Shown here one piece after another: positions 3,006 through 23,227 of a stretch of 24,811 nt of DNA. Below the pieces are notes generated by a model. That model saw only the letters and a list, made by a program, of their open reading frames with translations, did no database searches and had not been told where the DNA came from. The stretch is from a virus: the IMG/VR virus record IMGVR_UViG_3300028822_000182, positions 1-24,811 of that record; one strand, given 5' to 3'. Every line of letters begins with the position of its first letter. Positions within the stretch are counted from its first letter, which is position 1. Position numbers and translations under genes: made by a program.

Positions 3006-3406
3006 TGCCAGCAGTTCCAAAGAGATATACAAATGTTGTCCTCAGTTCAAATCCTTGTCCAGATTGCATAAGAGCAAATGGAATGACTATGACAATGACA
3101 GGATGGAAAACCTCAGTATTTGGAATACCCGGTTCTGATAAAAGAGTTTGTGATGGCCATTGCCATTGTGTCCTTGTTCCTATTGATATGATGAAAGAAC
3201 TTCCTGCTATAGATAAAAAAGTAAAGCTCAGGGGAGATGATATTACTGATATTGGGAAAACTGTTGATATTTATCCTAATGAGATTCTATTGAAAGAACT
3301 TATGGATGAATATAATATGAGAATAGGGAAGCTTCCTCCAGAGATATATGAGATGCCTCTTAATAAAGTTATTCCTTTTCTGGAAGGATTGCTTATAGGA
3401 AAATGA
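3005..3406 (+). CDS. Mu F / SPP1 gp7-like minor head protein zinc domain
   Basis: 133 residues. C18-P-D-C21, then about 27 residues on, C49-D-G-H-C-H-C55, the arrangement (CPxC ... C.C) seen at the C-terminus of Mu F/SPP1 gp7 head morphogenesis proteins, where it probably binds a metal. The family's long helical N-terminal part is absent, so this is a stand-alone domain much shorter than usual. Such proteins are minor capsid components acting with the portal. Position soon after portal supports this. The acidic C-terminal half (IGKTVDIYPNEILLKELMDEY) is not recognised. Confidence 0.5.
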   Translation: MPAVPKRYTNVVLSSNPCPDCIRANGMTMTMTGWKTSVFGIPGSDKRVCDGHCHCVLVPIDMMKELPAIDKKVKLRGDDITDIGKTVDIYPNEILLKELMDEYNMRIGKLPPEIYEMPLNKVIPFLEGLLIGK

Positions 3407-3870
3407 CAGTTAAACTTAAAGGATTCAGAACAACCAAGAGAATGCTTCATGATGTTGAAGCTTTCCTGAGATCCACTAAACCAATGGAAGGAATTGTTGA
3501 AGATGTTGCAGAGGAGATCCAGAAGAAAACAGCAAGAGCAGCAGATTATAAAAACAAGCCATTTGAGCCTTATTCTCCAGATTATGCCAAGAAGAAGAAA
3601 ACAACTCATGTTGATCTGAGGCTTTCTGGAAGAATGCTTAGTTCAATGAGAACGAAAGTTATTAATGCAAATCATGGCAGAGTTTTTATTAAACCAGCCG
3701 GATATCCAAAGACAAGAGCAAAGACTGATATGGTTGCAAATATCCATACAACCGGGACAGGGAAACAGCCTCAGAGAGAATTTCTAAACATATCAAAATC
3801 GGCTATGGCTAAAATTCATAGAAAGAATTACGATAATCCTATTATGAAAATATTAGGAAGGAGAAAATAA
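3403..3870 (+). CDS. gpG-like phage virion morphogenesis protein (tail completion type)
   Basis: 155 residues, ATGA overlap with the previous gene. Features of the Mu gpG-like/phage virion morphogenesis family: 'FEPYSPDYAKKKK', 'DLRLSGRMLSSM', and C-terminal 'QPQREFLNIS', matching the family's P-R-E-F-L-x-x-S motif. The family acts in joining heads and tails. It lies before the scaffold here, an unusual place, as neck genes usually follow the capsid gene. The last eight codons (MKILGRRK-stop, 3844-3870) have a second, recoded copy at 4416-4442, so the gene's end has been replaced by an HNH insertion. The protein is probably still intact. Confidence 0.7.
   Translation: MTVKLKGFRTTKRMLHDVEAFLRSTKPMEGIVEDVAEEIQKKTARAADYKNKPFEPYSPDYAKKKKTTHVDLRLSGRMLSSMRTKVINANHGRVFIKPAGYPKTRAKTDMVANIHTTGTGKQPQREFLNISKSAMAKIHRKNYDNPIMKILGRRK
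3844..3870 (+). repeat. Recoded copy of gpG-like gene 3' end (functional tail)
   Basis: Encodes MKILGRRK-stop as ATG AAA ATA TTA GGA AGG and so on, ending TAA. The second copy at 4416-4442 encodes the same eight residues as ATG AAG ATA TTG GGG AGA and ends TGA. Lys2, Leu, Gly, both Arg and the stop codon differ, only at synonymous or stop-type third/second bases. The left copy partly overlaps, antisense, the last codons and stop of the HNH gene. Confidence 0.85.
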
Positions 3871-4359
3871 AAATTGGCGTCCATCAAAAATTATCTCATT
3901 TTGGTTAACTGGTTTTTTGCGTTCAAATCTCATATGAGCCGATTTAGATATAAAGGCAATGAGATTTTTCGGACGATTATCAAATCTTTTGCCATTGAAA
4001 TGATGCACTTCTTCTTTACGAAGAAGCGGTCTTTTAATCAGATTTTCAACAATCAAACGATGTTCTCCGATATAACTACAAACAGCATGGGGATTGCTTG
4101 GACAATAAATAAGTCTATATCCCCTACGAATAGTTGTGCCAGATTTAAAAGCTGGATGATCTTTGCCGAATTTCCCAAGCATCGGATTTTTCCTTCCATT
4201 AGCAGCACTCATTGGGTTATTATCACCACAAAATGCAAGTGCAACACAACGCCGAGAACAATATTTTGCTCTACCTATTTTAATATCATAAGAACGAGCA
4301 AGAAATTGCTTGCCACAAATCATACATTTTTTCTCAATTGTTCCTCTTTGCTTAATCAT
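3853..4359 (-). CDS. Antisense HNH homing endonuclease
   Basis: 168 residues from the ATG at 4359. N-terminal zinc site C12-x2-C15 ... C34-x3-C38 (CMICGK, YCSRRC). Then a NUMOD3-like segment (NPMLGKFGKDHPAF), followed by an HNH_3-type nuclease core: EHRLIVENLIKRPLL, E-V-HH-F-N-G-K, D-N-R-P-K-N-L. It nicks or cuts target DNA and promotes its own spread by repair. It is the only clearly supported gene opposite to the phage operons. A TTG at 4404 would extend it, but that TTG is better read as part of the -35 box of its promoter. Codon use (CGA, AAT-rich) differs from neighbours. The gene splits the gpG-like gene from its old 3' end. Confidence 0.85.
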   Translation of the reverse strand: MIKQRGTIEKKCMICGKQFLARSYDIKIGRAKYCSRRCVALAFCGDNNPMSAANGRKNPMLGKFGKDHPAFKSGTTIRRGYRLIYCPSNPHAVCSYIGEHRLIVENLIKRPLLRKEEVHHFNGKRFDNRPKNLIAFISKSAHMRFERKKPVNQNEIIFDGRQFLFSPS

Positions 4360-4375
4360 TTTATTTCTTGGTTTA

Positions 4376-4404
4376 GATATAACATATATTCTCTCTATGG
4401 TCAA
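4376..4404 (-). promoter_or_regulatory. Promoter for antisense HNH gene
   Basis: On the minus strand: TTGACC (4404-4399), 17-base spacer, TATATC (4381-4376). A transcript would start near 4370, about 10 bases before the ATG at 4359. This explains how the endonuclease is expressed against the flow of the structural operon. The leader is short and its SD weak (AAGAAA). Confidence 0.45.
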
Positions 4405-4415
4405 GAAGTGATTTA

Positions 4416-4442
4416 ATGAAGATATTGGGGAGAAGGAAATGA
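4416..4442 (+). pseudogene. Orphaned original 3' end of the gpG-like gene
   Basis: Nine codons reading MKILGRRK-stop. The TGA at 4440-4442 overlaps the ATG of the next gene (ATGA, 4439-4442), the same close junction used elsewhere in this operon. This indicates that this is the ancestral gene end, cut off from its gene by the inserted endonuclease. The segment still carries the GGGGAGAAGG ribosome site for the next gene, which may explain why it was kept. Confidence 0.75.
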
Positions 4443-4699
4443 AGCCTAATTATCCTGTGATTATTATCTATGCAAGAGATTGGGGAATGGATACTGTTCT
4501 TATGACAAAAAAAGAAGTGAAGAGATTAAAAGTTCCTCAAGGCTGGCTTGTTGGCTGGTTAGTTGATGAAACAAAGGAAGCCATAAAACTTGCTCATGAG
4601 TATTTTGATGATTCAGATGAGTATGAATTCAGGTATGTTTCAACAATCCCAAAAGAAACGATTATTTATAAGAAAATAATATCTGAAGGAGATATCTAA
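4439..4699 (+). CDS. Hypothetical head-module protein
   Basis: 86 residues. Begins KPNYPVIIIYARDWG, a likely beta strand, then a helix-rich middle (KEAIKLAHEYFDDSDEYEF) and a strand end. The ribosome site is provided by the orphaned gpG-like tail. Acidic overall. No family recognised. Its place between neck-type and scaffold genes suggests a virion assembly role, by context only. Confidence 0.6.
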   Translation: MKPNYPVIIIYARDWGMDTVLMTKKEVKRLKVPQGWLVGWLVDETKEAIKLAHEYFDDSDEYEFRYVSTIPKETIIYKKIISEGDI

Positions 4700-22777: not shown

Positions 22778-23227
22778 ATGAGAAAAGGACAACATCATTC
22801 TGAAAAAACAAAAAGAAAAATAGGCAAAGCCAATAAAGGAAAAATTCGTTCTGAAAAAACAAAAAGAAAAATAAGTGAATCACTTAAAGGAAGAATTTCT
22901 CCAAATTGGAAAGGTGGAAGAAAAATTTCTGGAGGATATGTTTTTATTTATATGCCTGATCATCCAAATAATGTGCAAGGATATATTAGAAGAAGTCGTT
23001 TAATAGCAGAGAAAGCATTAGGTAGATATTTAAAACGAAATGAAATTGTCCATCATATTAATGAAAACAAATCGGATGATAGAAATTGCAATCTTTTAAT
23101 CTGCACTCAAGGTTATCATATATGGCTTCATCGAAAAATGGAAAGATTAAATAGATATAAAGGAATGAATAAATGGATATTTTTATTTATAGAAATAGGG
23201 AAAATAAAAGGATATGAAAATGGTTAA
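22778..23227 (+). CDS. HNH homing endonuclease with tandem NUMOD3 modules
   Basis: 149 residues. Two NUMOD3-type DNA-binding repeats (SEKTKRKIGKANKGKI, SEKTKRKISESLKGRI), then 'SPNWKGG', a strand segment (GGYVFIYMPDHPNNV), and an HNH_3 core: 'RSRLIAEKALGRYLKRNEIVHHINENKSDDRNCNLLICTQGYHIWLH'. Key H-H and the N/D-x-R-x-x-N-L segment are present. No clear SD lies before the ATG. It is in the same strand as the phage genes and sits between short ORF remnants. Unlike the antisense copy at 3853, it lacks an N-terminal zinc finger. Confidence 0.85.
   Translation: MRKGQHHSEKTKRKIGKANKGKIRSEKTKRKISESLKGRISPNWKGGRKISGGYVFIYMPDHPNNVQGYIRRSRLIAEKALGRYLKRNEIVHHINENKSDDRNCNLLICTQGYHIWLHRKMERLNRYKGMNKWIFLFIEIGKIKGYENG
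22798..22873 (+). repeat. Tandem repeat encoding two NUMOD3 modules
   Basis: A 25-base sequence at 22798-22822 is repeated exactly at 22849-22873, unit 51 bases (17 residues), and encodes SEKTKRKI twice. The intervening bases differ, so only part of each module is conserved. Confidence 0.85.

What the first reader, a model, noticed from the sequence alone, without database searches (positions are those of the whole stretch)
3844..4442. HNH insertion that carries its own synonymous replacement for the end of its target gene
The gpG-like gene ends MKILGRRK-stop at 3844-3870, and the same nine codons appear at 4416-4442, beyond the antisense HNH gene. The copies agree in every residue but differ in six of nine codons, all synonymous or stop-to-stop. 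The right copy still overlaps the next gene by ATGA, so it is the ancestral end. The left copy is antisense to the last codons of the HNH gene. The endonuclease therefore seems to have inserted near the 3' end while keeping the target protein whole, and the recoding could make the site uncuttable. A coding overlap that both ends the nuclease and restores the victim is, to my knowledge, not commonly described.
Basis: partly seen in the sequence, partly recalled or inferred. Interest (0 to 1): 0.85.

Follow-up and report, generated by a model that had tools for sequence, protein, structure and literature searches.

The report
Phage nuclease gene carrying replacement gene end
A selfish DNA-cutting gene has inserted at the end of a phage structural gene, and the structural gene now ends in a version with different DNA spelling but the same protein, while its old end lies stranded on the far side; this trick is documented in yeast and fungal mitochondria but I found no report of it in phages.

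Summary
MKILGRRK-stop is encoded twice around an antisense HNH gene (3844-3870 and 4416-4442). The copies differ at 6 of 27 bases, all silent A/G changes. HNH-free relatives end the gene the same way, so MKIL/IGRR is the native end, and the closest one overlaps the next gene by ATGA as the right copy does. Two other phages (L088, L089) carry a 70%-identical HNH gene antisense at the same place. There the last ~28 codons of the target gene are foreign: GC3 falls from 0.85-0.90 to about 0.4, and the two tails are 98% identical although the gene bodies are 85%. The nuclease gene is therefore linked to a target-gene 3' end. The best reading is homing with co-transfer of the target's 3' end, leaving the recipient's old end as a remnant. 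That is the architecture of yeast WHO elements and of fungal mitochondrial endonuclease ORFs. The HNH/gene-end overlap is incidental, because it is absent in L088/L089. The donor was not found. This is a new phage variant of a known kind.

The parts
3403..3870 (+). gpG-like tail-completion/neck gene, 155 aa, ending in the left (substituted) tail
   Evidence: phrog_26 'tail completion or Neck1 protein' E=1.3e-6, weak Phage_tail_S E=0.004; 36-56% identical homologs in many IMG/VR contigs
3844..3870 (+). Left copy of MKILGRRK-stop, in frame with the gene; inferred to come with the element
   Evidence: linkage of a foreign gpG 3' end to the same HNH family in L088/L089
3853..4359 (-). HNH endonuclease gene (likely start ATG near 4359, about 168 aa; longest ORF runs to 4404)
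   Evidence: phrog_20891 HNH endonuclease E=3e-17, HNH_3 E=0.0017; dN/dS about 0.1 against L088/L089
4376..4404 (-). Promoter-like TTGACC-17-TATATC for the HNH gene, conserved in L088/L089
   Evidence: read from sequence and alignment; not flagged by the promoter scan
4405..4415 (.). Right end of the element; same 17-nt spacing from the start of GGTCAAGA to ATGAAGA in window, L088 and L089
4416..4442 (+). Right copy of MKILGRRK-stop: displaced native end, with the ribosome-binding site (GGGGAGAAGG) and ATGA overlap of the next gene
4439..4699 (+). Downstream ORF, 86 aa, unknown function

Best explanation
The HNH gene, with its own promoter, is a free-standing homing endonuclease element aimed at the 3' end of the gpG-like gene. 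The nuclease cuts or nicks the native end in a phage that lacks it. Repair then copies from an element-bearing relative, bringing in the HNH gene and the donor's own end of the target gene, which replaces the recipient's end in the reading frame. In the window the right-hand exchange fell just before the native MKILGRRK, so that native end was pushed to the far side of the HNH gene, where it still supplies the ribosome-binding site and overlapping start of the next gene. The silent differences are those between donor and recipient alleles; they may also protect the new end from cutting. Shown: the two copies, the native status of the motif, the conserved HNH gene under purifying selection, and its linkage to a foreign target-gene tail in two other phages. 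Inferred: cutting, the direction of transfer, donor origin of the window's left copy, and resistance.
For: Exact peptide repeat with silent-only differences. HNH-free relatives carry the motif at the end of the gene, and L002 shares the ATGA overlap. L088/L089 carry a 70%-identical HNH gene antisense after the homologous gene. Their gene bodies match different HNH-free sisters (L088 with L087 94%, L089 with L090 91%), while their tails match each other (98% against 85% in the body, p=9e-4) and not the sisters (65% and 51%). GC3 falls to about 0.4 in those two tails, against 0.71-0.93 in HNH-free close kin L087, L090-L094. In both settings the right end abuts a host ATGAAGA at identical spacing; that heptamer occurs about 5 times per 10 kb in the window, so chance is near 5e-4. 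HNH dN/dS about 0.1 indicates a maintained protein. No Rfam intron in the window. WHO and mitochondrial mobile ORFs give the same architecture.
Against: No donor carrying the left-copy codons was found, and the window's own tail shows no compositional break beyond that of HNH-free MKIL-type relatives. L088/L089 replaced the whole tail and kept no detectable duplicate, so the duplicated arrangement rests on one genome. Tails also vary more than bodies between HNH-free phages (L087 against L090 86% to 59%). No cleavage data. The right remnant is only 27 bases.
Confidence: 0.74

Rival explanations
1. As above, but the left copy was shaped by selection to escape cutting: the six silent changes destroy the HNH recognition site, so the tail is an immunity cassette as in WHO elements.
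For: Changes are spread over the whole 27 bases and all silent. Most K-bearing HNH-free relatives (L002, L005, L008, L120, L128) keep ATGAAG where the left copy has ATGAAA, and ATGAAGA abuts the right junction in both insertion settings. WHO elements are resistant through allelic differences (PMC7282813).
Against: Most left-copy codons (AAA, GGA, AGA, TAA) are the commonest synonyms in this phage, so drift suffices; L122 has ATGAAA without the HNH gene; the insertion itself could break the site; the recognition sequence is unknown.
Confidence: 0.35
2. Simple target-site duplication: a staggered cut duplicated 27 bases on insertion and the copies then drifted apart.
For: Direct repeats flank the insert; an ATGARRA-like sequence is present at both ends in all three cases.
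Against: Six silent and no other changes have P of about 1e-4 or less if the right copy drifted freely; L088/L089 have foreign tails rather than duplicates.
Confidence: 0.08
3. Metagenome assembly artefact joining two strains, one with and one without the HNH gene.
For: The contig is metagenomic; only one genome has both copies.
Against: The right junction has the same spacing to ATGAAGA as in two separate contigs; no long shared overlap exists to drive a false join.
Confidence: 0.07
4. The interval is an intron or other spliced insert and the two ends are exon copies.
For: HNH genes often sit in group I introns.
Against: No intron family matches; the HNH gene is antisense; the left copy ends with a stop in frame.
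Confidence: 0.02

Closest known systems
WHO elements of Torulaspora and Lachancea yeasts (PMC7282813)
   Same: Endonuclease gene lies between a full-length target gene whose 3' end is donor-derived and a displaced fragment of the old 3' end; each homing replaces the 3' end; 3' ends evolve faster than bodies.
   Different: Intein-like nuclease fused to a zinc finger, in the yeast nuclear gene FBA1, ~400-bp fragments, tandem clusters, cleavage shown. Here HNH type, antisense, in a phage, 27-base remnant, no cleavage test.
Fungal mitochondrial mobile endonuclease ORFs forming gene hybrids (Allomyces atp6; Glomus atp6, atp9, cox2, nad3; PMC3630166)
   Same: C-terminal duplication: inserted foreign C-terminus in frame, then endonuclease ORF, then native C-terminus; close protein identity with divergent DNA.
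   Different: LAGLIDADG or GIY-YIG, often in phase with the gene, in mitochondria; here HNH and antisense.
Free-standing (intronless) homing endonucleases of T4-like phages, seg and mob genes (PMC2988022)
   Same: Phage, intergenic nuclease gene (HNH for mob), flanking sequence co-converted on transfer.
   Different: Cleavage sites are hundreds to thousands of bases away; I saw no duplicated or replaced target-gene end described in the passages of the review that I read; here the gene sits at the gene end with its own antisense promoter-like sequence.

Membership tests
HNH homing endonuclease (phage free-standing) | HNH nuclease domain with catalytic H/N/H residues | tested here: met
   phrog_20891 E=3e-17; HHxNG...N..NL...H conserved in three sequences; HNH_3 below its curated cut-off in the window, L088 and L089
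HNH homing endonuclease (phage free-standing) | Present/absent polymorphism at one site among relatives | tested here: met
   window, L088 and L089 with; more than 12 relatives without
HNH homing endonuclease (phage free-standing) | Site-specific cleavage and biased inheritance | not testable with these tools
   needs purified protein and mixed infection
WHO-type 3'-end-replacing homing element | Target gene 3' end is donor-derived and linked to the nuclease gene | tested here: met
   met in L088/L089; for the window itself only the silent divergence supports it
WHO-type 3'-end-replacing homing element | Displaced fragment of the old 3' end beyond the nuclease gene | tested here: met
   right copy 4416-4442; not found in L088, L089 or L100
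WHO-type 3'-end-replacing homing element | New 3' end resists the nuclease | not testable with these tools
   no cleavage assay
WHO-type 3'-end-replacing homing element | HO-like intein plus zinc-finger nuclease (family membership) | tested here: not met
   protein is HNH type; works like, is not a member
Group I intron with HNH gene | Intron RNA around the nuclease gene | tested here: not met
   no intron family at E<=1 in the window

The most novel reading that the evidence does not exclude
Phages have their own class of homing element whose mobile unit is an HNH gene plus a cut-resistant version of the target gene's 3' end, so every insertion leaves the gene whole and immune and can strand the old end behind it. 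It arose independently of the yeast and mitochondrial cases and drives fast turnover of gene ends in this phage group. L100, with a different HNH gene after a different gene, may be another instance.
Probability: 0.35. Interest if true: 0.7.

Novelty: new variant of a known kind. Interest (0 to 1): 0.57.

Why it matters
If right, it shows that the tail-replacing homing known from yeast and fungal mitochondria also operates in phages with an unrelated nuclease family. It would explain how homing genes enter essential, unspliced genes without an intron or intein, and why the ends of some phage structural genes evolve far faster than their bodies. It also gives a sequence mark (foreign gene end plus stranded old end) by which such elements could be counted in genome collections.

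Tried and rejected
Intron: no Rfam match. Target-site duplication with drift: rejected on silent-only changes. GC drop in the window's own tail as evidence of foreign origin: rejected, because HNH-free MKIL-type relatives show the same drop. Functional HNH/gpG overlap: rejected, absent in L088/L089. Homology of ATGAGGATATTA at the L088 left junction with ATGAAAATATTA in the window: undecided, because the aligner places the bases differently. Search for a donor by HNH protein, HNH alignment, conserved 19-mer, gpG alignment, tail pattern and neighbouring gene in IMG/VR: only L088/L089 and HNH-free relatives. Phage GenBank records: no DNA match and only distant proteins. No solved structure by sequence. 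Duplicated gene ends at the other HNH loci examined and at the window's second HNH gene: none found (several loci had no scorable neighbouring gene end). Literature searches for a phage precedent found none, but the library lacks most subscription journals.

Full report
Observation. The window is a 24,811-base IMG/VR virus record. The gpG-like gene 3403-3870 ends ATG AAA ATA TTA GGA AGG AGA AAA TAA. The stretch 4416-4442 reads ATG AAG ATA TTG GGG AGA AGG AAA TGA, the same eight residues and a stop. Six of nine codons differ, all by A/G transitions. Nothing else in six frames of the window comes closer than 5 of 9 residues. As DNA alone the repeat would not stand out: the repeat finder did not list it. 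If one copy had drifted without constraint, six changes would all be silent with probability about 2e-5 to 1.5e-4. The two copies therefore most likely diverged while each was a coding gene end.

What the ends are. HNH-free relatives with 36-56% identity in this protein end in IMKILGRVK (L002), IMKILGRA (L005), IMKILGRR (L008, L120), IMRILGRR (L103), IMKLLGRR (L128) and LMKIIGRR (L122). The motif is thus the native end. In L002 it runs into the next gene by ATGA, exactly as the right copy does at 4439. The right copy also contains GGGGAGAAGG just before that ATG, so it may be kept as the ribosome-binding site. Joining 3843 to 4416 gives the same 155-residue protein.

The insert. The antisense ORF is an HNH endonuclease (phrog_20891 E=3e-17; HNH_3 weak). 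L088 and L089 carry 70%-identical versions, also antisense and directly after the homologous gene. Against these, residues 16-177 show dN about 0.17 and dS about 1.6-1.8, so the protein is under purifying selection. Residues 1-15 show dN 0.31 and dS 0, so they are probably not coding; the stretch holds a conserved TTGACC-17-TATAT promoter-like sequence, and the real start is most likely the ATG near 4359. The promoter scan did not flag it because of its strict last-base rule. No intron RNA was detected. In all three genomes the right end lies at the same distance from a host ATGAAGA: the native gpG end in the window, and in L088/L089 the small KLIRTKR stretch that HNH-free L090 and L093 also have. 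That suggests a site preference, from two settings.

Linkage of the nuclease with a gene end. This is the decisive comparison. L088's gene body is 94% identical to HNH-free L087 and L089's is 91% identical to HNH-free L090, but over the last 28 codons these fall to 65% and 51%. Between L088 and L089 the tails are 98% identical although the bodies are 85% (p=9e-4). GC3 drops from 0.85-0.90 to about 0.4 only in the two HNH-bearing tails, against 0.71-0.93 in HNH-free kin L087 and L090-L094. HNH-free pairs also vary more in the tail, for example L087 against L090 86% to 59%, but none of those compared shows tails closer than bodies. So in these phages the HNH gene came with a foreign target-gene 3' end. 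In L100 a different HNH gene, on the sense strand, follows the upstream gene, and that gene's last 35 codons fall from 53% to 28% GC, the only such case among 22 loci.

Limits. For the window itself the donor origin of the left copy is inferred. Its low GC is no argument, since HNH-free MKIL-type relatives show the same drop. L088, L089 and L100 kept no detectable remnant, so the stranded old end is seen in one genome. The overlap of the HNH stop with the gene end is not conserved and is probably accidental.

Mechanism. Best supported is homing to the 3' end of the gene with co-transfer of the donor's end. The right-hand exchange lay before the native end in the window and after the native stop in L088/L089. 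Whether the substituted end resists the nuclease is open. Most of its codons are the common ones of this phage (AAA 67%, GGA 61%, AGA 67%, TAA 67%), so no special recoding need be invoked. Most K-bearing HNH-free relatives keep ATGAAG where the left copy has ATGAAA, but L122 does not.

Known parallels. WHO elements home into yeast FBA1, replace its 3' end at each insertion, leave the old end as a fragment beyond the nuclease gene, and gain resistance through allelic differences; cleavage was shown (PMC7282813). Glomus and Allomyces mitochondrial mobile ORFs give the same order with close protein identity and divergent DNA (PMC3630166). T4 free-standing nucleases co-convert flanking sequence but cut far from their genes (PMC2988022). 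My searches found no phage case with a duplicated target-gene end. The finding is therefore a phage, HNH-type variant of a known kind.

Noticed in passing
L100:1589-2484: A different, sense-strand HNH gene (with NUMOD3) sits between the upstream gene and the gpG-like gene; the upstream gene's last 35 codons drop to 28% GC from 53%, the only such drop in 22 loci, suggesting another nuclease linked to a foreign gene end.
   Followed up: partly
L088:3534-3575, L090:2983-3010, also L087, L091, L093, L094, L099: A conserved KLIRTKR-like stretch lies just before the ribosome-binding site of the next (scaffold-like) gene whatever gene precedes it; MKKLIRTKR resembles MKILGRRK and might be the remnant of an older displaced gene end. 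Speculative.
   Followed up: partly
22778-23227: A second HNH gene with NUMOD3 motifs (39% identical to the first over 84 residues); no duplicated gene end beside it.
   Followed up: partly
L087, L090, L091, L094 gpG-like genes: Even HNH-free phages mostly differ more in the last 28 codons than in the gene body, as yeast FBA1 does under repeated homing; could equally be weak constraint on the C-terminus.
   Followed up: partly
L088/L089 3040-3540: Their HNH genes are mosaic: about 80-90% identical over the 3' half and nearly identical over the 5' half and promoter, a sign of further recombination.
   Followed up: no
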